This document shows positions 51,421-64,000 of a stretch of 64,000 bases of DNA, piece after piece (position 1 is the first letter of the stretch; each line of letters opens with the position of its first letter). The DNA is from Antarcticirhabdus aurantiaca. Its GTDB lineage: Bacteria; Pseudomonadota; Alphaproteobacteria; Rhizobiales; Rhizobiaceae. The notes under the pieces are model-generated. The model saw nothing but the letters and a program-made list of their open reading frames with translations, was not told the DNA's origin and made no database searches. The stretch spans positions 1-64,000 of the forward strand of contig NZ_VTOM01000017.1 of NCBI RefSeq assembly GCF_009765365.1, written 5' to 3'. A program made the position numbers and the translations under genes.

Positions 51421-52365
51421 ATGACCGCCTTCGTCGCCAAGCGGCTGCTCGCCGCAATACCCGTGCTCTTCGGCCTGTCCGTGATCGTCTTCCTGATGAT
51501 CGCGCTGATCCCCGGCGACGCGGCGACGGCCATCCTCGGCTCCTTCGCGACTCCCGAGAACGTCGCCCGGCTGAACGCCGACCTCGGCCTCGACCGCTCG
51601 CTCCCCGAGCAGTACGGCCTTTGGATCTCCGGGGTCCTCAAGGGCGATCTCGGCCAGTCCTTCACGCTCAACCGGCCGGTGCTGGACGAGGTCGGCCAGC
51701 GCTTCGGCGCGACGCTGATCCTGGCGGGCGCAGCCCTCGTCCTGTCGTCCGTGATCGGGCTCCTCGCCGGCATCGTGTCGGCGGCGCGCCAGTTCGGCTG
51801 GGCCGACCGGGCGATCACGCTCGCCGTTCTCGTCGGCATCTCAGTTCCCTCCTTCTGGCTCGGCCTGATCCTCATCCTCGCCTTCGCCGTCGCCTGGCCG
51901 GTCTTTCCGCCGAGCGGGATGGTCGCGATCTACGGCGGCGGCGGGCCGCTCGACGTCGCGCACCACCTCGTGCTGCCGGCCGTGACGCTGGCGGTGGTGG
52001 CGAGCGGCGTCATCGCGCGGCTCACGCGCACCGCCATGCTGGAGGTGCTGCGCCAGGACTTCGTGCGCACCGCCCGCGCCAAGGGCCTCAGCGAACGCCG
52101 GGTCCTCTTCGGCCACGCCTTCCGCGCCGCGCTCGTCTCGGTGATCCCGGTGATCGGCATCCAGGCCGGCTTCGTGCTCGGCGGCGCCGTCTACGTCGAG
52201 ACGGTGTTCCAGTGGCCGGGCATCGGCGCCATGCTGGTCGAGGCGATCGCCAAGCGCGACGTGCTGCTCGTGCAAGGGGGCGTCCTCGTGGTGGCGGCCT
52301 CCTACGTCCTCTTCAACCTCGCCGCCGACCTCGCCCAGGCGCTTCTCGATCCGAGGCTCGCATGA
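51421..52365 (+). CDS. Peptide-type ABC transporter permease (DppB-like)
   Basis: A 314-aa permease: MTAFVAKRLLAAIPVLFGLSV at the N-terminus, the DppB domain EVLRQDFVRTARAKGLSERRVLFGHAFRAAL with EAA-like loop, and a C-terminal VETVFQWPGIGAMLVEAIAKRDV. Six membrane helices. It overlaps the fused permease-ATPase gene by four bases. Confidence 0.92.
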   Translation: MTAFVAKRLLAAIPVLFGLSVIVFLMIALIPGDAATAILGSFATPENVARLNADLGLDRSLPEQYGLWISGVLKGDLGQSFTLNRPVLDEVGQRFGATLILAGAALVLSSVIGLLAGIVSAARQFGWADRAITLAVLVGISVPSFWLGLILILAFAVAWPVFPPSGMVAIYGGGGPLDVAHHLVLPAVTLAVVASGVIARLTRTAMLEVLRQDFVRTARAKGLSERRVLFGHAFRAALVSVIPVIGIQAGFVLGGAVYVETVFQWPGIGAMLVEAIAKRDVLLVQGGVLVVAASYVLFNLAADLAQALLDPRLA

Positions 52366-54308
52366 GCGCCGTCGTCGACGCGCCTCCGGTCGCGCCCGCC
52401 GTGGACAGCCGTGCCGCCCGGCGCCCCTCCTCGCTGGCGCTCCTCCTCCACAACAGGCCGGCCGCGCTCGGGCTCGTTCTCCTGATCCTGGTCGCCCTCG
52501 TCGCGCTTCTCGCGCCGGTCCTGCCGCTGCCCGACCCGAACGCCACCGCACCGGCGGACCGGCTGAAGCCCTTGTTCTCGCCCGGCCACCTCCTCGGCAC
52601 CGATCCGCTCGGCCGCGACGTCCTTTCCCGCCTCATCTGGGGCACGCGCGTCTCGCTGAGCGTCGGCATCGCCGCCTCGCTCATCGCGGCCGTGGTCGGC
52701 TCGGCGATCGGCCTTGCCGCCGGCTATTGCGGGCGCTTCGTCGATTCGGCGCTGATGCGCGGCGTCGACACGCTGATGGCCTTTCCCTACATCCTCCTCG
52801 CGCTCGCCATCGTCGCGATCCTCGGCCCCGGCCTCGTCAACGCCCTCTACGCCATCGCGCTCGTCAACATCCCCTTCTTCGCCCGCAACATCCGCGGCGT
52901 GACGATGGGCCTCGCGCGCCGCGACTTCGTCGACGCGGCCCGGCTGTCGGGGAAGAGCGAGCTCAACATCGTCCTCACCGAGATCCTGCCCAATGTGCTT
53001 CCGGTGATCGTCGTGACGCTCTCGACGACCGTCGGCTGGATGATCCTGGAAACGGCGGGCCTGTCCTTCCTCGGCCTCGGCGCGCAGCCGCCGCAGGCCG
53101 ACCTCGGCTCAATGCTCGGCGAAGGGCGGCGCCTTCTGTTCACCGCGCCGATGGTCTCGCTGGTGCCGGGCGCGATGATCTTCCTCATCGTCGTATCGAT
53201 CAACCTCCTCGGCGACGGCATCCGCGACGTCCTCGACCCGCGCCTGCGCTCGGGCGCCCTGGCCCGCCCCTCGGCGCGCACGGCCGTCGATCCCGGCCGC
53301 GCGCGGCCGTCGAGGGCCCCGGCGCCCGGCGCCGTCCTCGACGTGGCGGGCCTCCGGGCGGAGTTCCGCACGGGGTCCGAGACCTTTCATGCCGTCGGCG
53401 GCGTGGATCTCGTCCTCGCGCCCGGCGAATGCCTCGGCCTCGTCGGCGAATCGGGCTCGGGCAAGTCGGTGACGGCGCTGAGCCTCGCCGGGCTCGTGCC
53501 CTCGCCGCCCGCTCACATCACCGGAGGCAGCGTAGGCTTTGGTGGTGAAGACCTCCTCGACGCGCCGTTGTCGAAGCTGCAGGCGCTGCGCGGCGACGCG
53601 ATCGCTTACGTCTTCCAGGATCCGCTCTCGACGCTCCACCCCATGATGCGCGTCGGCGATCAGGTGATGGAGGCGGTGCGGGCGCATCGCAAGGTGTCGC
53701 GCGAGGCAGCCGAAGCGCGCTGCCGCGAGCTGTTCGAGACGGTGCGCATTCCCAACCCGGAGGCGCGCATGCGCGCTTTTCCGCACGAATTGTCGGGGGG
53801 CCTTCGCCAGCGCGTCGCCATCGCCATGGCGCTCGCCAACGATCCCGTGCTCCTCGTCGCGGACGAGCCGACGACGGCGCTCGACGTGACCGTCCAGGCG
53901 GAGGTGCTGCGCCTTCTCGACCGGCTGCGGCGCGAGCGCGGCATGGCCGTCCTCTTCATCACCCACGACTTCGGGGTGGTCTCGCAGCTCTGCGATCGCA
54001 TCGCGGTGATGTATGCCGGCCGCATCGTCGAGACCGGCCCGGTGAAGGCGGTGCTCGACGCGCCGCGCCACCCCTATACGCGCAAGCTGATCGACTGCGT
54101 GCCGGTGGTCGGGCGACCGGAGCGCGAGCTCGCCGCGATCCCCGGCCGGGTGCCGGCGCTGAACCGCCTGCCGCCCGGCTGCGCCTTCGCCGAGCGCTGC
54201 GAGCGAGTGCGCGACGACTGCCGCCGGGGCGAGATCCCGCTCGCGTCCGTAGCCGCCGACCGCGCCGTCCGCTGCCTCCATCCGCTCGCACCGGGAGCAG
54301 CGGCATGA
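52362..54308 (+). CDS. Fused peptide ABC transporter permease and ATPase (DppC-DppD)
   Basis: A 648-aa fusion. Residues 1 to about 300 are a DppC-like permease (GTDPLGRDVLSRLIWGTRVS, FVDAARLSGKSELNIVLTEILP). After a Pro/Arg-rich linker (about 303-325), the rest is a DppD-like ATPase with Walker A GESGSGKS, LSGGLRQRV and DEPTTALD, ending in a Cys-containing oligopeptide C-terminal domain (PPGCAFAERCERV). Normally these are separate genes; the fusion is seen elsewhere in Alphaproteobacteria as annotated permease/ATP-binding proteins. The reading frame is continuous through the linker, so it is not a sequencing frameshift. Confidence 0.9.
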   Translation: MSAVVDAPPVAPAVDSRAARRPSSLALLLHNRPAALGLVLLILVALVALLAPVLPLPDPNATAPADRLKPLFSPGHLLGTDPLGRDVLSRLIWGTRVSLSVGIAASLIAAVVGSAIGLAAGYCGRFVDSALMRGVDTLMAFPYILLALAIVAILGPGLVNALYAIALVNIPFFARNIRGVTMGLARRDFVDAARLSGKSELNIVLTEILPNVLPVIVVTLSTTVGWMILETAGLSFLGLGAQPPQADLGSMLGEGRRLLFTAPMVSLVPGAMIFLIVVSINLLGDGIRDVLDPRLRSGALARPSARTAVDPGRARPSRAPAPGAVLDVAGLRAEFRTGSETFHAVGGVDLVLAPGECLGLVGESGSGKSVTALSLAGLVPSPPAHITGGSVGFGGEDLLDAPLSKLQALRGDAIAYVFQDPLSTLHPMMRVGDQVMEAVRAHRKVSREAAEARCRELFETVRIPNPEARMRAFPHELSGGLRQRVAIAMALANDPVLLVADEPTTALDVTVQAEVLRLLDRLRRERGMAVLFITHDFGVVSQLCDRIAVMYAGRIVETGPVKAVLDAPRHPYTRKLIDCVPVVGRPERELAAIPGRVPALNRLPPGCAFAERCERVRDDCRRGEIPLASVAADRAVRCLHPLAPGAAA

Positions 54309-55249
54309 GCGCGGTTCTCCAGGCCCGGGCCCTTGCCAAGCGCTTCGGCGGCGGCCGCTCGCTGCCCTTCGCACCGCCCCGGCGCGCGATCCACGCTCTG
54401 CGCGGCGTCGATCTCGACCTCGTCGCCAGCGAAACGCTCGGCATCGTCGGCGAGTCGGGCTGCGGCAAGTCGACCCTCGCCCGCCTCCTCGCCGGTCTCG
54501 ACAGCCCGAGCGAGGGCTCGGTCCGCGCGGCAGACGGAGGAGACGGGCGGGGCGGCGCCGTGCAGTACGTGTTCCAGGACCCGGCGGCTTCGCTCAACCC
54601 GCGCCTGACCGTCGGCCGGGCGATCGAGGCGCCGCTGCGCCACCGGCTCGGGCTTCCGGCGGGGGAGCGGCAGCGCCGCCTGCCCGAGCTGATGGACGCC
54701 GTGGGGCTCGGGCCGGACGCGCTGGAGCGCTATCCGCACGAGTTCTCCGGCGGGCAGGCGCAGCGCATCGCCATCGCCCGCGCGCTCGCCGCCGAGCCGC
54801 GAACGCTGGTGCTCGACGAGCCGGTCTCGGCGCTCGACGTGTCGATCCAGGCGCAAGTCCTGAAGCTGCTGCGCGGGCTTCAGGACGAGCGCGGCCTCGC
54901 CTACGTCTTCATCACCCACGACCTGTCGGTGGTGGAGGCGATCGCCGACCGGATCGCGGTGATGTATTTCGGCCGGGTGGTCGAGGAGTCGCCGGCGCGT
55001 GCCATCTTCGCCGCTCCGCGCCACCCCTATACCCGCCTTCTCCTGGACTCCGCGCCCGTGCCGGGCCGGCGCCTGGCGGGTTCCCGAGCCGATGCGGGCG
55101 AGCTGCCGGACCCGGCGAACCCGCCGCCCGGCTGCGCCTTCGCCTCGCGCTGTCCCCGCGTGCAGGCCGACTGCCGCGAGCGGCAGCCGGACCTTGATGC
55201 GGCCGGCGGCGGCGCCCACCGCGCCGCCTGCTTCCACCCGTTGGCCTGA
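54305..55249 (+). CDS. Peptide-type ABC transporter ATP-binding protein (DppF-like)
   Basis: A 314-aa ATPase: Walker A GESGCGKST, FSGGQAQRI, Walker B TLVLDEPVSALDVS, and the C-terminal PPGCAFASRCPRVQADC typical of peptide importers. It forms the second nucleotide-binding subunit with the ATPase half of the fused protein. It overlaps that gene by four bases. Confidence 0.93.
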   Translation: MSAVLQARALAKRFGGGRSLPFAPPRRAIHALRGVDLDLVASETLGIVGESGCGKSTLARLLAGLDSPSEGSVRAADGGDGRGGAVQYVFQDPAASLNPRLTVGRAIEAPLRHRLGLPAGERQRRLPELMDAVGLGPDALERYPHEFSGGQAQRIAIARALAAEPRTLVLDEPVSALDVSIQAQVLKLLRGLQDERGLAYVFITHDLSVVEAIADRIAVMYFGRVVEESPARAIFAAPRHPYTRLLLDSAPVPGRRLAGSRADAGELPDPANPPPGCAFASRCPRVQADCRERQPDLDAAGGGAHRAACFHPLA

Positions 55250-55260
55250 GGTCTCAGGCC
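55243..55260. terminator. Inverted repeat with both stop codons of a convergent pair
   Basis: GGCCTGAG-GT-CTCAGGCC: two 8-bp arms with a 2-base centre. The TGA of the ATPase gene and the TCA (minus-strand stop) of the oxidoreductase gene lie in opposite arms. A cruciform or weak terminator is possible; there is no U-tract. Confidence 0.4.
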
Positions 55261-56489
55261 GGCTGGGGCTCGATGGCGACCGATCCGCCGGCGCGCGCGC
55301 TCTGGAGGGCGGCGAGCCCGGTGAGCACGGACATGGCGCCGGCGCGCGAGCCGGCGCGCTGCTTCAGGCGGTCGTTGGAGCCCGGCTTGAAGATCATGTC
55401 GCGCATGCGGTTGTCGCCGCCGTAATGACCGCCCGGCTCGTGCGGCACCCAGATCCGCTCGACGCCGCCGCCGAAGCTCTTGACGAGAAGGATCTCGTCG
55501 GCCGGCGGCTCGCTCCAGGGCTGGCGCTCGTATTGCCGCATCTCGATGCGGCCGCGCCGGCCGTTGAAGGCGATGTGGTGCCCCTCGATCGGCATGTAAG
55601 TGTTCAGGGAATAGGAGACCTGGACGCCGCTGGCATAGCGGATCGAGGCCGTCATCGTGTCGGGGATGTCGATGTCCTCGCGGAACACGCAGGCGTCGCG
55701 GAAGTAGCCGTCGACGGCGGACGGCTCCTCGTAGAGCGCGTCGAGGAACGGGTCGGCCGCAAGGTCCATGTAGTAGTCGCATTCGGACTTGTGCGGGCAG
55801 GTCTTGCAGCGGGGCCCGCGGAAGGGGCCGTTGCGGCCGTAATGAAGGAGCTGGCCGAAGCCCTTCACCTCGACGGGGTCGGATTCGAGATACCAGTTGA
55901 GGAGGTCGAAGTGGTGGGTCGCCTTGTGAACGAAGAGCGAGCCCGAATGCTTGGTGAAGGCGTGCCAGCGGCGGAAGTAGTCGGCGCCATGGGCGTTGTC
56001 CAAGTACCAGTGGAAGTCGACGGAGGTGACCTCACCGATCGCGCCGTCCTGGATCAGCTCCTTCATGCGCGCGGCGGTCGGCGCGAAGCGGTAGTTGAAG
56101 GACACGTCGACGCGGCGCCCGGTGCGCTTCTCCGCCTCGCGGATGCGCTCGATCTTCTCGAAGCTCGTCGTCATCGGCTTCTCGCTGATGACGTCGGCGC
56201 CCGCTTCCATCGCCTTGACGATGATGTCGTCGTGGGTGTCGTCGGGCGTGCAGACGATCACGAGGGCGGGCTTCAGCTCGGCCATCATCGCGTCGAAGTC
56301 GGCGTAGAGCGGGGCGTTCGAGCCGATCATCGCCCGCGCGCGCTCCGCCCGCATCAGGTTCAGGTCGCAGATGCCGACGAGCTCGACGTGGCTCGACCAG
56401 CCCGCGAGAAGCTCGCGCCCCCACATCGTCGTGCCGCGATTGCCCGTGCCGACGAGGACGTAGCGGGTGCGGGTCGTTTGCGATGCCAT
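55254..56489 (-). CDS. Gfo/Idh/MocA-family dehydrogenase
   Basis: A 411-aa NAD(P)-dependent sugar dehydrogenase-like protein. N-terminal Rossmann motif VLVGTGNRGTTMW, the EKP motif (VISEKPMTTSFEKI) and a C-terminal substrate domain with HKATHHFDLLNWYL and a cysteine motif CKTCPHKSEC. The ATG at 56489 has GGGAGG seven bases upstream; an ATG six bases earlier is too close to it. It is the last gene of the catabolic operon. Confidence 0.87.
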   Translation of the reverse strand: MASQTTRTRYVLVGTGNRGTTMWGRELLAGWSSHVELVGICDLNLMRAERARAMIGSNAPLYADFDAMMAELKPALVIVCTPDDTHDDIIVKAMEAGADVISEKPMTTSFEKIERIREAEKRTGRRVDVSFNYRFAPTAARMKELIQDGAIGEVTSVDFHWYLDNAHGADYFRRWHAFTKHSGSLFVHKATHHFDLLNWYLESDPVEVKGFGQLLHYGRNGPFRGPRCKTCPHKSECDYYMDLAADPFLDALYEEPSAVDGYFRDACVFREDIDIPDTMTASIRYASGVQVSYSLNTYMPIEGHHIAFNGRRGRIEMRQYERQPWSEPPADEILLVKSFGGGVERIWVPHEPGGHYGGDNRMRDMIFKPGSNDRLKQRAGSRAGAMSVLTGLAALQSARAGGSVAIEPQPA

Positions 56490-56539: not shown

Positions 56540-57367
56540 TCAGCACACCGTCCGATAACGCTCGACGATCGTGTCGAGCACCTCGCCGGCGGGCCGCGCG
56601 CCCCAGCGGTGCGAGAAGATCTCGACCTCCTGGGGGCCGTGAAAACCGGCGGCCTCGATGAGGCCGCGGAAGCGCTTCAGATCGATCACGCCGTCGCCCA
56701 TCATGCCGCGATCGTTGAGGATGTCGGTGGTCGGCACCAGCCAGTCGCAGATGTGGTGGGCGTAGATCTGGCCGGCGCGGCCGGCGCGGGCGATCTGCGC
56801 CTCGAGCTCGGGGTCCCACCAGACGTGGTAGACGTCGATGGCGACGCCGGCGCCCTCGCCGAGCGCGTCGCAAAGGTCGAGCGACTGCTTGAGCGTGTTG
56901 AAGCAGGCGCGATCGCCCGCGTAGGACGGGTGCAGCGGCTCGACCGCGAGCTTGACCCCGGCCGAGCGGGCGTAAGGCAGGAGCTCGGCCATGCCGTCGG
57001 CGACCATGGCGCGGGCGCCGGGCAGATCGCGCGAGCCCTTGGGCAGGCCGCCCACCACCATCACCAGGCAGTCCGCGCCGAGCGCCGCGGCCTCGTCGAC
57101 GGCGCGGCGGTTGTCGTCCAGCGCGGCGCGGCGGCCGGCCTCGTCGGGCGCGGGAAAGAAGCCGCCGCGGCAGTAGCCGGTGACCCGAAGACCGTTGTCG
57201 CGCACGATGCGCGCGGCCTCGTCGAGCCCCGCTCCGGCGACGTGCTCGCGCCAGGGGGAGATCGCGCGGATGCCCCGCGACAGGCAGGCATCGACGATCT
57301 CGCCGAAGGAGCCGGCCTGACGGACGGTCGCGAAGTTGATGGAGAGGCCGGAGAGGTCCGTGCTCAT
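56540..57367 (-). CDS. Sugar phosphate isomerase/epimerase-type TIM-barrel protein
   Basis: A 275-aa xylose-isomerase-like TIM barrel: SINFATVRQAGSFGEIVDACLSRG, KLAVEPLHPSYAGDRACF and VAIDVYHVWWDPELEAQI, with metal-ligand Glu/His/Asp in VEPLHP and DVYHVWWD. These enzymes isomerise, epimerise or eliminate on sugars. The start at 57367 overlaps the upstream enolase gene (ATGA). A role after oxidation by the MocA dehydrogenases, as in 3-keto-sugar beta-elimination, is plausible but unproven. Confidence 0.84.
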   Translation of the reverse strand: MSTDLSGLSINFATVRQAGSFGEIVDACLSRGIRAISPWREHVAGAGLDEAARIVRDNGLRVTGYCRGGFFPAPDEAGRRAALDDNRRAVDEAAALGADCLVMVVGGLPKGSRDLPGARAMVADGMAELLPYARSAGVKLAVEPLHPSYAGDRACFNTLKQSLDLCDALGEGAGVAIDVYHVWWDPELEAQIARAGRAGQIYAHHICDWLVPTTDILNDRGMMGDGVIDLKRFRGLIEAAGFHGPQEVEIFSHRWGARPAGEVLDTIVERYRTVC

Positions 57368-58794
57368 GCCGCGATGTCCTTTTCCGACAAGCTTGCGAAG
57401 GCGGCCTCGGCCGCCGGGGCCGCGACGCCGAGGCCGGGGCTCGCCAGAACCGAGCCGAGCGCGATGCGGCCCGCCTCGACGCGCAGCCGGAGGTTGGCGC
57501 CATGCGGCCGATAAAGGTCGGGATGGACGTCGAGGAAGGCGCCGGCCTCCCGCGCATCCGCCCCGGCCATGCCGTCGACGTAGTGGTGGCCGTTGCGCTC
57601 GACGTGGCCGAGCGAGAGGAGGCTCGCCAGCGCGAGGTCCTGCTGGACGGCGATGCCGGCCTGGGTGGTCAGGTCCTCGGCCGACATGAAGAAGCACTCG
57701 CTTCCGGCTTGCGCGTTCCACTGTGCGACACGCGCGGCGTTGAGGACGGCGCGGTAGAAGCCCTTGCAGGACTTGGAAGAGATGCCGGTGTAGCCGCAGG
57801 CGCGCGCTTCCAGGAAGGCGTTCGGCGTGCCGTCGGATTCGTCGATCTCGACGGGCACGCGCACGGCGAGGCGCGCGACCGGCTCGGAGAGCGCCTTGGC
57901 TCGATTGATCGGCTGCTCGACGAAGAGGATCGAAGACCGGAGGCGCTTGAGGGCCGGCTCGGCCTCGATGCGGTCCCAGAGGTCGAGGACATGGGCCTCG
58001 TCGTCGAACTGCTCGTTGCCGTCGAGGGTCGCGCGGTAGCGGTCAAAGCGGTCGAGAACGCCGGCGACGGCTTTGAGCCGCTCGACGTCGGCTTCCGGAC
58101 GGCCGGAGAGCTTGATCTTGAAGTGCGAGATGCCGAGCGCCTCGATCTCCTCCGTCAGGCTCTCAGGCAGTCCGTCGCCGAGGCGGGTGCCCACCTCCTC
58201 CGGCCGCAGCGCGTCGGCGTAGCCGACAGTGTGGCGGAGATGGAGACTCGGCTGTGGGCGGAGGCCGGCGAGGAAGGCAGGCAGGTCGAAGCCCGCGAGG
58301 TCCCGCGTCGTCGAGGCGTCGATGCCCGGACGGTTGGCGCGAATGGCGTCCGTGACCGGCAGGTCGTCGAGCCGGCAAAGGGCGTCGAGGATGGCACGGT
58401 CGACGAGGGCGAGACCGAAGGAGGCGATGAGGCCGTTGAGCCCTTCCGCGCCGGCCGCGCGGTGGTGAGCCGGCTCAAGAGCGGCGTGGAGGCCGAAGGC
58501 GCTGGCAGGCGCGGCCTCCAGCGCGAGGCCGGCGGCGATCTGCAGCGAGCGGCGCAGCTGCGCCTCGTTGTCTTCGTTGGACAGCTCCGGGTTCTTGTCG
58601 AACCACTTCGGCACCATCAGCTCGGCGGCGTAGCCCTCCGCCTGCCGACCGGCACCGTCCTCGACGCGCAGGCGCAGGAAGGCCTGGCGCGCGCGCGTCA
58701 CCGTCGCCGCGCCGAAGCGGAAGGGCAAGCGCATCGCGACGGGCCGCTCGAAGAGCCCGGCCTCGACGACGCGAAGGGTGGGCGCGTCCGTCAA
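57364..58794 (-). CDS. Enolase-superfamily (mandelate racemase/MLE-like) enzyme
   Basis: A 476-aa protein with the superfamily signature: Lys226-x-Lys228 (FKIKLSG), metal ligands in TLDGNEQ, FVEQPI and IDESDG. It removes an alpha-proton from a carboxylate, as in sugar-acid dehydratases; substrate is unknown. It starts with TTG at 58794, supported by a TTGA overlap with the DUF993 gene stop and by the family-like N-terminus beginning after it. Confidence 0.8.
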   Translation of the reverse strand: MTDAPTLRVVEAGLFERPVAMRLPFRFGAATVTRARQAFLRLRVEDGAGRQAEGYAAELMVPKWFDKNPELSNEDNEAQLRRSLQIAAGLALEAAPASAFGLHAALEPAHHRAAGAEGLNGLIASFGLALVDRAILDALCRLDDLPVTDAIRANRPGIDASTTRDLAGFDLPAFLAGLRPQPSLHLRHTVGYADALRPEEVGTRLGDGLPESLTEEIEALGISHFKIKLSGRPEADVERLKAVAGVLDRFDRYRATLDGNEQFDDEAHVLDLWDRIEAEPALKRLRSSILFVEQPINRAKALSEPVARLAVRVPVEIDESDGTPNAFLEARACGYTGISSKSCKGFYRAVLNAARVAQWNAQAGSECFFMSAEDLTTQAGIAVQQDLALASLLSLGHVERNGHHYVDGMAGADAREAGAFLDVHPDLYRPHGANLRLRVEAGRIALGSVLASPGLGVAAPAAEAAFASLSEKDIAA

Positions 58795-59963
58795 TGGACG
58801 CCCCGGACGCTCAGGAACTGCGCCATGCGCCGCGCCGCCTCGTCGGGATCGGCGAGGACGCCGGCGCGGTCGGCGAGGCGGAAGAGCTTGGCGAGGTGCA
58901 GCGTCGAGCGGGCGCTTTCCTGGCCGCCCACCATGGTGAAGTGGTCCTGGAGCCCGTTCAGCCAGGCCAGGAAGACGACGCCGGTCTTGTAGAAGCGGGT
59001 CGGCGCCCGGAAGATGTGGCGCGACAGGGCGACGGTCGGCTCCAGCGTCGCGTGGAACCCGTCGAGGCGGCCGTTTTTCAGGTCCGCCAGCGCCTGCGAG
59101 GCGGCTGGGGCGATGGCGTCGAAGATGCCGAGAAGCGCGTCGGAATGGCCGTGCTCGTCGCCGGCGATGAGTTCGGCATAGTTGAAGTCGTCGCCGGTAT
59201 ACATGCGGACGCCCGCCGGAAGCCGCCGGCGCATGGCGATCTCCTTCTCCTTCGACAGGAGCGAGACCTTGATGCCGTCGATCCTGGCGGCGTTCGCCTC
59301 GATCATCGCCAAGCACGTGTCCATCGCTTCGAGATGGTCGCTCGACCCCCAATAGCCTTCGAGGGCGGGATCGAACATCTCGCCGAGCCAGTGGATGATC
59401 ACCGGGCGCTCGGTCTTGGAGAGGACGTGGTCGTAGACTTCGAGGTAGTCCTCGGGGTCCCTGGCGTGGGCGGCGAGCGCGCGGCTCGCCATGAGGATGA
59501 CCTGCCCGCCCTCCCCTTCCACGAAGGCCACTTGTTCGTCATAGGCGTTGGCGATGTCGCGCAGCGACTGGCCGGGGCCGGGCGCGAGATGGTCGGTGCC
59601 GGCGCCGCAGGCGATGAGGCCGTCGCCCTCGCCGCGCGAGCGGGCCTCCTTCAGCGAGCGGCGGATCAGCTCCTGCGCGTCCTCGTAAGCGAGGCCCATG
59701 CCGCGCTGGGCCGTGTCCATGGCTTCGGCGACGCCGAGGCCGAGGTCCCAGAGCCGATGGCGGAAGCGCAGCGTCGCGTCCCAGTCGATGGCGGGCGCGA
59801 CCCAGGGATCGCTCTCGGCGAGCGGGTCGGAGACGACGTGCGCCGCGGCATAGGCGATGCGGTCGAAGTCGGAGGCCCGGCGGCGGGCGAGCGGCACGGG
59901 GGTGCCGGTCAGTCGGTATGTCTCGGTGCGGCGGTTCGGGGTCGGCAGGACGATCTCGGTCAT
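58791..59963 (-). CDS. DUF993 family, dihydrodipicolinate-synthase-like
   Basis: A 390-aa protein annotated in databases as DUF993 or DHDPS-like. GIKVSLLSKEKEIAMRRRLPAGVRMYTGDDFNYAELI contains the likely Schiff-base lysine of a class I aldolase fold. Function has not been established; in an operon with dehydrogenases and an enolase enzyme it could split or dehydrate a keto-sugar acid. Start at 59963, 17 bases after the dehydrogenase gene. Confidence 0.8.
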   Translation of the reverse strand: MTEIVLPTPNRRTETYRLTGTPVPLARRRASDFDRIAYAAAHVVSDPLAESDPWVAPAIDWDATLRFRHRLWDLGLGVAEAMDTAQRGMGLAYEDAQELIRRSLKEARSRGEGDGLIACGAGTDHLAPGPGQSLRDIANAYDEQVAFVEGEGGQVILMASRALAAHARDPEDYLEVYDHVLSKTERPVIIHWLGEMFDPALEGYWGSSDHLEAMDTCLAMIEANAARIDGIKVSLLSKEKEIAMRRRLPAGVRMYTGDDFNYAELIAGDEHGHSDALLGIFDAIAPAASQALADLKNGRLDGFHATLEPTVALSRHIFRAPTRFYKTGVVFLAWLNGLQDHFTMVGGQESARSTLHLAKLFRLADRAGVLADPDEAARRMAQFLSVRGVH

Positions 59964-59980: not shown

Positions 59981-61123
59981 TCAGCCGATCGCCGGCACGT
60001 CGAGCCAGCGGCGCTCGCGCCAGGACTTCAGGCCGAGTTCGGCGAGCTGCACGCCCTTCACGCCCTCCATCAGCCCGTAGGGCCAGGGGCCGCCCTCAAC
60101 GAGGTGGCGGACATACATTTCCCACTGCGCCTTGAAGCCGTTGTCGTAGGTCACGTTGTCCGGCACCTCGTCCCAGGTCCGGTAGAAGTCGATGGTCTGG
60201 GACTGGTCGGGGTTCCAGACGGGCTTCGGCGTGTTCACCCGGTGCTGCGTCCAGCACTTGGTGAGGCCGGCGACGGCCGAGCCGAGGGTCCCGTCGACCT
60301 GGAAGGTGACGAGGTCGTCGCGGCGCACGCGCACGGCCCAGGACGAGTTGATCTGCGCGATCACGCCGCCTTCCAGTTCGAAGGTGGCATAGGCCGCGTC
60401 GTCCGCGTCGGCCTCGTAGCGCCGGCCGTGCTCGTCGACGCGGGACGGGATGTGCGTGGCGCCGAGGCACGAGACGGCCTTCACCTCGCCGAAGAGGTCG
60501 TCGAGGACGTAGCGCCAGTGGCACAGCATATCGAGGATGATGCCGCCGCCGTCCTTCAGGCGGTAGTTCCAGGACGGGCGCTGGGCCGGCTGCCAGTCGC
60601 CCTCGAAGACCCAGTAGCCGAACTCGCCGCGCACCGAGAGGATCTGGCCGAAGAAGCCGCTGTCGCGCAGCATTGCGAGCTTGCGAAGCCCCGGCAGGAA
60701 GAGCTTGTCCTGGACGACGCCGTGGCGCACGCCGGCGCTTTCGGCGAGGCGCGCGACCTCCAGCGCCTCCTCCATCGTGTCGGCGATGGGCTTCTCGCAG
60801 TAGACGTCCTTGCCGGCGCGGATGGCTTTCGCGAGCAGTTGCCCACGCATCTGCGTCGTGCCGGCGTCGAAGAACAGCGTGTCGTCGGGGTTCTTCAGGG
60901 CCGCGTCGAGATCGTCGGTCCAGCGCTCGATGCCGTGGCGCTTGGCGATCTCGCCGACCTTCTCGATGTTGCGGCCGACGAGGATCGGGTCGAGCATGAC
61001 CTTCTCGCCGGTCGAAAGCGTGACGCCGCCCTGCGCCCGGATGGCCACCACCGAGCGCACGAGGTGCTGGTTGTAGCCCATGCGCCCGGTGATCCCGTGC
61101 ATGATCACGCCGATCCGCTTCAT
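59981..61123 (-). CDS. Gfo/Idh/MocA-family dehydrogenase, first gene of catabolic operon
   Basis: A 380-aa Rossmann-fold oxidoreductase: GVIMHGITGRMGYNQHLVRS at the N-terminus, CEKPIADTMEEALEVARLAE and GGGIILDMLCHWRYVLDDLFG. It differs from the other MocA protein at 55254 in its N-terminus and cysteine content, so they act on different steps or substrates. The ATG at 61123 is 77 bases downstream of an operator-like 14-mer. Confidence 0.87.
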   Translation of the reverse strand: MKRIGVIMHGITGRMGYNQHLVRSVVAIRAQGGVTLSTGEKVMLDPILVGRNIEKVGEIAKRHGIERWTDDLDAALKNPDDTLFFDAGTTQMRGQLLAKAIRAGKDVYCEKPIADTMEEALEVARLAESAGVRHGVVQDKLFLPGLRKLAMLRDSGFFGQILSVRGEFGYWVFEGDWQPAQRPSWNYRLKDGGGIILDMLCHWRYVLDDLFGEVKAVSCLGATHIPSRVDEHGRRYEADADDAAYATFELEGGVIAQINSSWAVRVRRDDLVTFQVDGTLGSAVAGLTKCWTQHRVNTPKPVWNPDQSQTIDFYRTWDEVPDNVTYDNGFKAQWEMYVRHLVEGGPWPYGLMEGVKGVQLAELGLKSWRERRWLDVPAIG

Positions 61124-61199: not shown

Positions 61200-61213
61200 T
61201 AACCGTTTGGTTA
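61200..61213. promoter_or_regulatory. Operator copy 1, before the catabolic operon
   Basis: TAACCGTTTGGTTA, whose reverse complement differs in one base from the 14-mer at 62025-62038. It is 77 bases upstream of the catabolic operon's first start codon and 50 bases downstream of the TetR gene's stop. Dyad symmetry TAACC/GGTTA fits a TetR-family binding site. Confidence 0.65.
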
Positions 61214-61262
61214 TTTGTGGAGAGGAATCGCCGTGCTTGTCAACCGGGTAATTGCCGGCGCC

Positions 61263-61979
61263 TCACGCGCGGCAGGCGGCGATCACGGTCGCGGCGATAT
61301 GATCGCCCCAGCGCTCCAGCTCGGTCGGCGACTGGAGGTCGCGGCGGAAGATGGTCGAGAGCGTGTAGCGGTTGGACAGGTAGAAATAGCCGAGCGAGGC
61401 GATGGTGAGGTACACCGTCACCGGATCGAGACCGGCCCGGAACACGCCGCCGTCCGTGCCGCGCCGCAGCACGTCGGCCAGTTCGCCCTGGAAGTTCGAG
61501 TGCATCTCGGGGATGTCCTCGGCCTGGCGCAGGTACCTCGCCTTGTTGAGGTTCTCGGTCGCGAGGAGGCTGAGGAACTCCGGGTGATCGAGGTAATAGT
61601 GCCAGGTGAAGAGGGCGAGCTCGCGCAACCCCTCCTCCGGGTCGCGACGCGTGAGGTTCAGCCGCCGCTCGGCATGGCGGATCTGCCGGTAGGCGTCGGA
61701 CAGGACGGCGAGGTAGAGCGCGTCCTTGTCGCCCCAGTAGTGGTAGATCATCCGCTTGTTGGTGCCGGCGCGCCGGGCGACGACGTCGATGCGCGCCCCC
61801 GCCAACCCCTTCTCCGCGAATTCGCGCTTGGCGGCCTCGAAGATCGCGGCCTTCGTGCGCTCGGGGTTGCGCGTCGACCCAGCCGTACGGCGCGCCGCCG
61901 CCTTGCGAACCGGCGCCTTCGCCGTCTCCACCGCGGCCTCTCCGACACCGTCCGCAACCTCAGACCGAGCGTCCTCCAT
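61263..61979 (-). CDS. TetR-family transcriptional regulator of the sugar locus
   Basis: A 238-aa protein with an N-terminal basic extension (about 40 residues) and the TetR helix-turn-helix (RTKAAIFEAAKREFAEKGLAGARIDVVARRAGTNKRMIYHYWGDKDALYLAVL). The rest is a ligand-binding helical domain. The start at 61979 begins the extension. It lies between the catabolic operon, in the same direction, and the divergent transporter operon; near-identical operators flank it on both sides, implying that it controls both and itself. Confidence 0.9.
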   Translation of the reverse strand: MEDARSEVADGVGEAAVETAKAPVRKAAARRTAGSTRNPERTKAAIFEAAKREFAEKGLAGARIDVVARRAGTNKRMIYHYWGDKDALYLAVLSDAYRQIRHAERRLNLTRRDPEEGLRELALFTWHYYLDHPEFLSLLATENLNKARYLRQAEDIPEMHSNFQGELADVLRRGTDGGVFRAGLDPVTVYLTIASLGYFYLSNRYTLSTIFRRDLQSPTELERWGDHIAATVIAACRA

Positions 61980-62000
61980 TCCCTGCACCTCTGCTTGACA

Positions 62001-62018
62001 ACCACTTCGATCAGTGGT
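62001..62018. promoter_or_regulatory. Additional inverted repeat in the tetR/transporter intergenic region
   Basis: ACCACT-TCGATC-AGTGGT, six-base arms and six-base centre. It is seven bases from the operator at 62025 and could be a second regulator site. Confidence 0.35.
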
Positions 62019-62024
62019 CCGTTG

Positions 62025-62038
62025 TAACCAAACAGTTA
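62025..62038. promoter_or_regulatory. Operator copy 2, between tetR and the sugar importer
   Basis: TAACCAAACAGTTA, 13 of 14 bases identical to the reverse complement of the site at 61200-61213. It is 46 bases upstream of the tetR start and 77 bases upstream of the importer start. Confidence 0.65.
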
Positions 62039-62114: not shown

Positions 62115-63407
62115 ATGACCCCATCCATGAATCGCCGCAGCATCCTCAAAGCCGGCGCGGCCGCCTTGTCGCTGGCCGCTCTCGGGGCGCCCGGCTTGGC
62201 GCTCGCCCAGGAGCAGCGCCTGCGCTTCCTGTGGTGGGGCAGCCAGGAGCGGGCCGACCGCACCAACCGCGCCCTCGAGGCCTACAAGGCCGCCGCGCCC
62301 CAGACGCAGATCGTCGGCGAGTTCGCCGGCTGGTCCGACTACTGGCCGCGGCTCGCGACGCAGGTCGCCGGCCGCAACGCCCCCGACCTCATCCAGATGG
62401 ATTACCGCTACATCTTCGAATATGCGCGGCGCGGCGCGCTGCTGCCGCTCGACGAGTATCTGGGCCAAACCCTCAAGATCGAGGATTTCGGCGCGGCCAA
62501 CATCGATTCCGGCCGTGTCGACGGCAAGCTCTACGGCATCAATCTCGGCGTGAACTCCTCTTCCATCGCCTTCGACGCGGCGGCCTGGGAGGGCACGGGC
62601 GCGACGCCGCCGACGCCCGAGACGACCTGGGAGGAATTCGCGGAAGCAGCGACGACGTTCGGCGAGAACAAGCCCAAGCCCGGCTACTACGCCTCCGCCG
62701 ATGCGGGCGGCGTCGAGCCGGCCTTCGAGCTCTGGCTGCGCCAGAACGGCAAGGCGCTCTACACGCCCGAAGGCGGCCTCGGCTACGAGCCGGCGGACGC
62801 GGCGAAATGGTTCGCGCTCTGGGCCGACATGCGCGAGCGCGGCGCCTGCGTGCCGCCCGACATCCAGGCGCTCGACCAGCTCAACATCGAGACGAACGCG
62901 CTCACCACCGGCAAGGCGGCCACCGCCTTCATGCATTCCAACCAGTTCGTCGGCTACCAGGCGCTGAACAAGGCCAAGCTCACCCTCGGCCCCTACCCCA
63001 AGGGCGCGAAGGACGGCCCGTCGGGCCACTATCTCAAGCCCTCCATGCTGCTCTCGCTCTCGGCCGCGACCGGCGGGGCGGACGCCGCGGTCGCCTTCGC
63101 CAACTTCCTCGTCGCCGACATCGCGGGCGCCAAGGCCATCGGCATCGAGCGCGGCGTTCCCGCCTCCCAGGCCATCCGCGAGGCGCTGACGCCGGAGCTG
63201 AACGAGGTCGACACGGCGATGGTCGACTACATCGCGCTGATCACGCCGGGCGTCGGCCCGCTGCCGGCCGCCCCGCCGTCGGGCGCGGGCGAGATCCAGT
63301 TCGTCCAGAAGCGCGTCAACGAGGAAGTGGGCTTCGGCCAGATCACGCCCGAACAGGCGGGCGAGACCCTCCATTCGGAAGCGAGCGCCATCCTCCAGCG
63401 GGGTTGA
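62115..63407 (+). CDS. Sugar ABC transporter substrate-binding protein
   Basis: A 430-aa family-1 sugar-binding protein with a twin-arginine-type signal (NRRSILKAGAAALSLAAL). Body motifs include AGWSDYWPRLATQVAGRNAPDLIQMDYRYIFEYARRG and GKAATAFMHSNQFVGYQ. The ATG at 62115 has CGGGAGGA upstream. It is the first gene of the importer operon divergent from tetR; the permease gene follows after 4 bases. Confidence 0.88.
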   Translation: MTPSMNRRSILKAGAAALSLAALGAPGLALAQEQRLRFLWWGSQERADRTNRALEAYKAAAPQTQIVGEFAGWSDYWPRLATQVAGRNAPDLIQMDYRYIFEYARRGALLPLDEYLGQTLKIEDFGAANIDSGRVDGKLYGINLGVNSSSIAFDAAAWEGTGATPPTPETTWEEFAEAATTFGENKPKPGYYASADAGGVEPAFELWLRQNGKALYTPEGGLGYEPADAAKWFALWADMRERGACVPPDIQALDQLNIETNALTTGKAATAFMHSNQFVGYQALNKAKLTLGPYPKGAKDGPSGHYLKPSMLLSLSAATGGADAAVAFANFLVADIAGAKAIGIERGVPASQAIREALTPELNEVDTAMVDYIALITPGVGPLPAAPPSGAGEIQFVQKRVNEEVGFGQITPEQAGETLHSEASAILQRG

Positions 63408-63411
63408 TCCC

Positions 63412-64000
63412 ATGACGATGCAGTCCGTGGCGACGGACCTCGGCGGCGCGAACGCGCCCGCCGGGGCCGTCCCCGGCGCCGCGCGCCGAGCCTGGGCGCG
63501 AAACGGCCCGGCCTATCTCTTCCTTCTGCCCTGGCTCATCGGCTTTTTCGGGCTGACGCTCGGGCCGGCCCTCGCCTCGCTCTACCTGTCCTTCACCAAT
63601 TACGACCTGATCCGCTCGCCGGACTGGGTCGGCGCGGCCAACTACGTGCGCATCGCCACCGCCGACCCGAAGTTCGCGGCGGCGATGAAGGTGACCTTCC
63701 TCTACGTGGTCCTGTCGGTGCCGCTGAAGCTCGCCTTCGCGCTGCTCGTCGCCATGGCCTTCAACCGCGGGCTCAAGGGCCTGCCGGTCTACCGGGCGAT
63801 CTTCTACCTGCCATCGCTCCTCGGCGCCTCCGTCGCCATCGCGGTCCTCTGGCGCCAGCTCTTCGCCTCCGACGGCCTCGTCAACATGGTCCTCTGGCAG
63901 CTCTTCGGCATCGAGGGGCCGAGCTGGATCTCGAACCCGAACTATTCGCTCTATACCCTCGTGATCCTGTCGGTCTGGCAGTTCGGCTCGCCGATGATCA
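63412..64000 (+). CDS. Sugar ABC transporter permease, N-terminal 196 residues (cut by window end)
   Basis: The frame from the ATG at 63412 stays open to the last base. It reads PAYLFLLPWLIGFFGLTLGPALASLYLSFTNYDLI and NYVRIATADPKFAAAMKVTFLY, a MalF/UgpA-type permease N-terminus with four membrane helices so far. The C-terminus with its EAA loop lies beyond the window. Confidence 0.88.
   Translation, partial: MTMQSVATDLGGANAPAGAVPGAARRAWARNGPAYLFLLPWLIGFFGLTLGPALASLYLSFTNYDLIRSPDWVGAANYVRIATADPKFAAAMKVTFLYVVLSVPLKLAFALLVAMAFNRGLKGLPVYRAIFYLPSLLGASVAIAVLWRQLFASDGLVNMVLWQLFGIEGPSWISNPNYSLYTLVILSVWQFGSPMI

What the first reader, a model, noticed from the sequence alone, without database searches (positions are those of the whole stretch)
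61200..62038. Twin TetR operators frame a complete sugar regulon
The 14-mers at 61200-61213 and 62025-62038 are reverse-complement copies with one mismatch, each 77 bases before the first start of an operon it would control. This defines a three-way regulon (catabolic operon, tetR, importer).
Basis: seen in the sequence. Interest (0 to 1): 0.6.

Follow-up and report, generated by a model that had tools for sequence, protein, structure and literature searches.

The report
Conserved operator pair of a TetR repressor
Two near-identical DNA switches flank a repressor gene and probably let it turn on a sugar-like uptake and breakdown gene set as a unit; many related bacteria keep the same arrangement, but the compound involved is unknown.

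Summary
TAACCGTTTGGTTA (61200-61213) and the reverse complement of TAACTGTTTGGTTA (62025-62038) sit 77 bp before a dehydrogenase-led catabolic operon and a binding-protein-led importer. They are the only TAACYGTTTGGTTA sites in the 5.9 Mb genome. A dyad ranking made without the motif puts TAAC-N6-GTTA first, in 32 of 32 and 37 of 37 upstream regions and 0 of 69 gene middles. Where the cluster is rearranged, sites stay with promoters. A TTGACA lies 24 bp before both window operators, and at 24-25 bp in most relatives. Conservation fades: 18 of 40 loci from other families keep such a site. The core equals the PcaQ box; two further genomic matches are PcaQ boxes, separable by flanking bases. Most likely an ordinary autoregulated TetR repressor with two operators. 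Binding, effector and substrate are untested; neither 'DUF993' nor six operator 14-mers was found in the searched papers.

The parts
61200..61213 (-). Operator A, TAACCAAACGGTTA read towards GfoA; would control the catabolic operon
62025..62038 (+). Operator B, TAACCAAACAGTTA read towards SBP; between divergent tetR and importer, so may control both
61238..61243 (-). TTGACA, -35-like box 24 bp upstream of operator A, towards GfoA (a promoter is inferred)
   Evidence: sequence; spacing; no full sigma-70 match
61995..62000 (+). TTGACA, -35-like box 24 bp upstream of operator B, towards SBP (a promoter is inferred)
   Evidence: sequence; spacing; no full sigma-70 match
61263..61979 (-). tetR gene (238 aa; TetR_N + TetR_C_29)
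59981..61123 (-). GfoA, Gfo/Idh/MocA oxidoreductase; close relative of structure 3oqb, named only 'Oxidoreductase'
58791..59963 (-). DUF993 protein; close relative of structure 4dnh, named 'Uncharacterized protein'
57364..58794 (-). Enolase-superfamily-like enzyme (probable TTG start); no Pfam match at 0.001, assigned by predicted fold and weak profile matches
56540..57367 (-). Xylose-isomerase-like TIM barrel (AP_endonuc_2); relative of 3ju2 (SMc04130)
55254..56489 (-). GfoB, second Gfo/Idh/MocA oxidoreductase (start may be 56495)
62115..63407 (+). Solute-binding protein (SBP_bac_1), first importer gene
63412..64000 (+). First permease, cut by the window end (continues to 64368 of the contig). 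Beyond the window: permease to 65254, two Gfo/Idh/MocA genes to 67339, MalK/UgpC-like ATPase to 68454

Best explanation
A TetR-family repressor, probably a dimer, binds two pseudo-palindromic operators (consensus about WTRTAACYA-WW-TRGTTAYAW). Operator A blocks the promoter of the catabolic operon GfoA-DUF993-enolase-like-isomerase-GfoB. Operator B blocks the importer promoter and probably the divergent tetR promoter. The operators lie just downstream of TTGACA boxes, where the -10 region and transcription start would be, so repression would be by blocking RNA polymerase. An intermediate of the imported carbohydrate would release TetR and induce everything together. Shown here: the sites, their conservation, their positional tie to these promoters, and the TetR family. 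Inferred: binding, sign of regulation, autoregulation, effector and substrate.
For: Only two TAACYGTTTGGTTA sites in the genome, both here. 190 of 190 TAACYNNNNRGTTA sites in 97 tetR loci lie upstream (up to 400 bp from the projected start) of a cluster gene, tetR included; 80 of 80 in 42 representatives, the window being one of them, against a simulated mean of 0.05 (20 runs, largest 1); 77 of 80 named loci have two or more. Inverted 4-mer dyad ranking made without the motif puts TAAC-N6-GTTA first: 32/32 GfoA and 37/37 SBP upstream regions, 0/69 gene middles. Sites stay with promoters through rearrangements: L048, L053, L054, L055 (importer or tetR moved or turned), L047 and L080 (site before GfoB, no GfoA found there), L051 (tetR about 5 kb away, site before GfoA); L053 has a third site 187 bp before tetR. 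TTGAC lies 24-25 nt before the operator in 31 matches among 37 importer sites and 35 among 42 catabolic sites. TetR_N + TetR_C_29 with a confident TetR fold; the stretch N-K-R-M-x-Y-H-Y, in the predicted third helix, is invariant in 22 aligned proteins. Same gene order with TetR annotated, and both sites, in S. meliloti Ak57.
Against: No binding or expression data. Of 40 loci from other families only 18 have a site within 400 bp upstream of a cluster gene, 18 have none in the fetched stretch and 4 have one elsewhere, although 38 of 40 have a TetR homologue. Of the 28 sites in those 40 loci about 6 are not assigned to a cluster gene start (my count). No full sigma-70 promoter is recognised. The same palindrome core is used by PcaQ. 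Loci are related, so counts are not independent; several of the 97 loci are the same contig fetched by two tools. In the gene-middle control other dyads reach 33 of 69 through conserved codons, so dyad frequency alone is not proof.
Confidence: 0.87

Rival explanations
1. The sites are PcaQ (LysR) boxes, or are shared with PcaQ, because the PcaQ motif ATAACC-N4-GGTTAT has the same core.
For: The PcaQ motif is quoted as ATAACC-N4-GGTTAT in PMC3557286 (passage). Two of the five genome-wide matches lie between pcaQ (TIGR02424 above cut-off in both loci) and the next divergent gene, which is pcaDC in L038.
Against: 0 of 80 representative sites carry A before and T after the core, as both PcaQ boxes of this genome do; at least one flank is G (before) or C (after). 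The sites go with the TetR cluster, and the two pcaQ genes lie on other contigs.
Confidence: 0.04
2. TetR binds the sites but acts as an activator, or has a dual role, because the -10 regions are poor and the operator sits 24 bp after the -35-like box.
For: Fixed spacing between TTGACA and operator without a recognisable -10.
Against: An operator over the predicted -10/start region is a repressor position, and most characterised TetR proteins are repressors (general knowledge, no call).
Confidence: 0.07
3. Chance or non-regulatory repeats.
For: Within the 64 kb window alone, 3 of 100 shuffles gave at least two matches at up to 3 mismatches.
Against: Only two exact sites in the genome, and conservation across genera with diverged surroundings.
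Confidence: 0.01

Closest known systems
Local autoregulated TetR-family repressors (closest solved structures 3npi; then RutR 4xk4, 4jyk)
   Same: TetR_N HTH, helical C-domain, palindromic site between divergent genes
   Different: A second operator before a separate catabolic operon; 28% (3npi) and 20-21% (RutR) identity in the fold search; NCBIfam RutR score 46.1 against cut-off 368
S. meliloti cluster: LZK74_16645-16700 of strain Ak57, probably SMc04130-SMc04139 of strain 1021 (the latter inferred from tags)
   Same: Same gene order: transporter, two Gfo/Idh, TetR, Gfo/Idh, DUF993 homologue (annotated dihydrodipicolinate synthase family), mandelate racemase, isomerase, Gfo/Idh; both sites present
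   Different: TetR 60% identical; no functional assignment seen in the passages read
PcaQ box (LysR)
   Same: TAACC-N4-GGTTA core
   Different: Both flanks A..T in the two PcaQ boxes of this genome; 0 of 80 here
3-keto-glycoside / levoglucosan-type pathways (Gfo/Idh dehydrogenase plus eliminase or hydratase)
   Same: Gfo/Idh enzymes plus a sugar-isomerase-like TIM barrel plus an importer; an A. tumefaciens example is in PMC10628242 (passages)
   Different: Levoglucosan dehydrogenase model scores 62.7 and 67.8 against cut-off 650; DUF993 and an enolase-like enzyme are added

Membership tests
TetR family regulator | TetR_N helix-turn-helix above Pfam cut-off | tested here: met
   51 bits against cut-off 24
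TetR family regulator | All-helical ligand-binding C-terminal domain | tested here: met
   TetR_C_29 140.4 bits against 26.2; model mean pLDDT 84.2 with residues 1-34 under 50; best PDB match 3npi, probability 1.00
TetR family regulator | Binds a palindromic operator near its own gene | tested here: inconclusive
   Conserved palindromes next to tetR; binding not measured
TetR family regulator | Ligand releases it from DNA | not testable with these tools
   Needs a binding assay with candidate ligands
RutR | NCBIfam RutR equivalog cut-off | tested here: not met
   46.1 bits against 368
PcaQ regulon | ATAACC-N4-GGTTAT with A/T flanks | tested here: not met
   0 of 80 representative sites; both PcaQ boxes of this genome have A..T flanks
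Levoglucosan pathway | Levoglucosan dehydrogenase (NF052479) above cut-off | tested here: not met
   62.7 and 67.8 bits against 650 for the two Gfo/Idh enzymes of the catabolic operon; the two in the importer operon were not scanned with NCBIfam
Carbohydrate ABC importer (MalK/UgpC type) | SBP_bac_1, MalF/MalG- or UgpA/UgpE-like permeases, ATPase with TOBE and MalK OB fold | tested here: met
   SBP_bac_1 68.6 bits against 26; ATPase 460.7 bits against UgpC subfamily cut-off 432; permeases match these families but below equivalog cut-offs

The most novel reading that the evidence does not exclude
An undescribed TetR regulon spread through Hyphomicrobiales controls an uncharacterised carbohydrate pathway (up to four Gfo/Idh oxidoreductases, DUF993, an enolase-fold enzyme and a xylose-isomerase-like barrel). 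Its operator is a look-alike of the PcaQ box, and only the bases flanking the shared core keep sugar and aromatic regulation apart.
Probability: 0.5. Interest if true: 0.5.

Novelty: new member of a known kind. Interest (0 to 1): 0.33.

Why it matters
It assigns a target set and an operator to a widespread TetR subfamily in Hyphomicrobiales. It also ties DUF993 and an enolase-like family without a Pfam match into one co-regulated, probably carbohydrate, pathway. Inducer screening with an operator reporter would be a direct way to find the unknown substrate.

Tried and rejected
Other genomic sites as extra regulon members: of five TAACYNNNNRGTTA places, two are here, two are PcaQ boxes and one (L040) lies inside an ORF, so no further exact-pattern target was found in this genome. 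Mismatched sites genome-wide were not searched.

Substrate: Pfam, NCBIfam and PDB sequence searches gave close relatives with family names at most (3oqb, 4dnh, 3ju2, 3qc0, 7vpf) or distant ones. Literature searches: DUF993, six operator 14-mers, SMc04131-04135 and SMc04137, SMc04134 with TetR, SMc04130, and combined terms. DUF993, the 14-mers and SMc04130 gave no paper; in the other listings (titles and abstract starts only) I saw none describing this regulon. SMc04136 and other locus tags were not searched.

Low-identity TetR homologues as a contrast: in the 8 loci L030-L037 (46-50% identical; L033 is short) no site with up to 3 mismatches was seen; L057-L059 (46-49%) have none beside tetR.

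A fold search of the enolase-like model lists enolase, mandelate racemase, muconate/chloromuconate and related isomerase entries in its 50 rows, at 13-20% identity and query TM-score 0.52-0.59. A promoter scan found no full sigma-70 match; the one terminator-like match, overlapping site A, is at chance level (0.7 expected).

Rows dropped: one search kept 80 of 419 relatives. One search used L005, L041-L056 and L061-L140 (97 loci) and left out L057-L060 (low-identity TetR, no cluster). Several of the 97 are the same contig fetched twice; the 42 representatives (TetR under 90% identity) avoid this. In some searches ATPase hits under 50% identity and dpp hits were removed before display. Of 45 other-family genomes with a GfoA match I fetched 40; G277, G365, G425, G456 and G486 were left out. 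The enolase alignment used the window plus 18 of the 25 rows printed.

Full report
OBSERVATION. Each is a pseudo-palindrome, TAAC-N6-GTTA. Read towards its target gene, site A is TAACCAAACGGTTA and site B is TAACCAAACAGTTA, so they share orientation as well as sequence. The distances to the GfoA start (61123) and the SBP start (62115) are both 77. Each operator also lies 24 bp downstream of a TTGACA (61238-61243 minus; 61995-62000 plus). In the whole 5.9 Mb genome TAACYGTTTGGTTA occurs only at these two places. Within the window alone chance is less sharply excluded: 3 of 100 shuffles gave two or more matches at up to 3 mismatches.

SURROUNDINGS. On the minus strand GfoA, DUF993, an enolase-like enzyme, a xylose-isomerase-like protein and GfoB are tightly packed from 61123 to 55254. 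tetR (61979-61263) lies upstream of them on the same strand. The importer runs the other way: SBP, two permeases, two more Gfo/Idh/MocA oxidoreductases and a MalK/UgpC-like ATPase, ending at 68454 of the contig, beyond the window. The enolase-like gene has no Pfam match at 0.001; its predicted model (mean pLDDT 89.9) matches enolase-superfamily structures at 13-20% identity and query TM-score 0.52-0.59.

CONSERVATION. In 247 genomes of the family, 107 have a tetR relative at E <= 1e-40, and loci of the best 30 were fetched. With up to 3 mismatches to site A, two sites flank tetR in L009-L018, L020, L021, L023 and L024; one is seen in L025, L027 and L028; none in L019, L022, L026 and L030-L037; L029 has one 1.2 kb off. 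These loci are only about 3.6 kb. One profile scan of named genomes found 419 relatives and kept the best 80, from Aurantimonadaceae, Agrobacterium, Rhizobium, Neorhizobium, Brucella endophytica, Kaistia, Chelativorans and others. Over 97 loci (L005, L041-L056, L061-L140; some are one contig fetched twice) 190 of 190 TAACYNNNNRGTTA sites are within 400 bp upstream of the projected start of a cluster gene, tetR included. In 42 representatives with TetR identity under 90%, the window among them, it is 80 of 80, against a mean of 0.05 in 20 first-order Markov simulations. 77 of 80 named loci have two or more sites; the three exceptions (L114, L131, L137, all Chelativorans) have one, before GfoA. 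The surrounding intergenic sequence differs widely while the site stays. A ranking of all inverted 4-mer dyads in 200-bp upstream regions, made without my motif, puts TAAC-N6-GTTA first: 32 of 32 GfoA and 37 of 37 SBP regions, 0 of 69 gene middles. In the gene middles the best dyad reached 33 of 69, as conserved codons will do.

REARRANGEMENTS. The site stays with the promoter rather than with tetR. In L054 and L055 tetR sits between the importer and GfoA, and sites remain before SBP and GfoA. In L048 and L053 the importer is turned or moved and a site goes with it; L053 has a third site 187 bp before tetR. In L047 and L080 no GfoA was found and the site is before GfoB. In L051 tetR is about 5 kb away and the site is before GfoA. 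S. meliloti Ak57 has the same order with annotation and both sites.

LIMITS OF CONSERVATION. In 249 genomes drawn from the order, 48 have a close GfoA (E <= 1e-110) and 19 a tetR relative at E <= 1e-60. Of the 45 GfoA genomes from other families I fetched 40. 38 of 40 have a TetR homologue in the stretch, but only 18 of 40 have a site within 400 bp upstream of a cluster gene; 18 have no site at all, and 4 have one elsewhere. In several of the site-less loci the upstream stretch reads to me like coding sequence of another gene, so the promoter may lie further out (not tested). The operator therefore belongs to one broad TetR clade and not to every relative of the enzymes.

PROMOTER LOGIC. TTGAC lies 24-25 nt before the operator in 31 matches among 37 importer sites and 35 among 42 catabolic sites, and within 40 nt in 65 of 67. 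With a 17-nt spacer the operator would start at about the transcription start. No full sigma-70 promoter is scored, so this is inference.

LOOK-ALIKE. The core equals the PcaQ motif ATAACC-N4-GGTTAT, quoted for S. meliloti PcaQ in PMC3557286 (passage). Two of the other three genomic matches are PcaQ boxes beside pcaQ genes; the third is inside an ORF. In 0 of 80 representative TetR sites are both flanks A..T; the base before TAAC is a purine in every half-site counted, G in 65%. This is a testable rule separating the two.

LITERATURE. DUF993 is in no paper of the searched library, and none of six operator 14-mers is. S. meliloti SMc04132, 04133, 04135, 04138 and 04139 appear in a table of PMC12542648 (one passage; I did not use its values), and SMc04134 is listed as a transcription factor in PMC11387232 (passages). 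That these are the orthologous cluster is inferred from the tags, the PDB name of 3ju2 (SMc04130) and the Ak57 gene order. A 3-keto-glycoside pathway with related enzyme families is described in A. tumefaciens in PMC10628242 (passages only); whether this cluster works that way is open.

VERDICT. The finding is real and the reading is right in its core: a local TetR repressor with two operators and a three-way regulon. It is ordinary in kind, well supported by comparison, unproven at the bench, and its substrate is unknown.

Noticed in passing
L038 (G000:C11:121594) and L039 (G000:C23:51199): The genome holds two pcaQ genes (TIGR02424 above cut-off), each divergent from a pcaDC-like ORF (scanned in L038 only) with one ATAACT-N4-GGTTAT box between them.
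   Followed up: partly
window 57364-58794: Enolase-fold enzyme family without a Pfam match at 0.001; 19 aligned members share many invariant residues, among them the stretch E-R-N-G-H-H.
   Followed up: partly
L005 15265-17339 (contig 65265-67339): Two further Gfo/Idh/MocA oxidoreductases sit inside the importer operon, between the second permease and the ATPase.
   Followed up: no
L051, L114, L131, L137: Two TetR genes of this family (60-61% and 49-52% identical to the window's) converge, some kilobases from GfoA; only one operator is seen, before GfoA.
   Followed up: no
L109-L112, L115-L120: In these Rhizobium loci no GfoA, DUF993 or isomerase hit was found in the stretch, but both operators remain and a second SBP lies downstream.
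   Followed up: no
window 51421-55249: ABC transporter genes (called dpp-like by me from the translations, not scanned against a library) converge on the catabolic operon; not followed.
   Followed up: no
PV425003.1 48072-48686 (phage record): The one phage record hit by the TetR protein (39% identical) is a Pseudomonas phage with an annotated AcrR family regulator.
   Followed up: no
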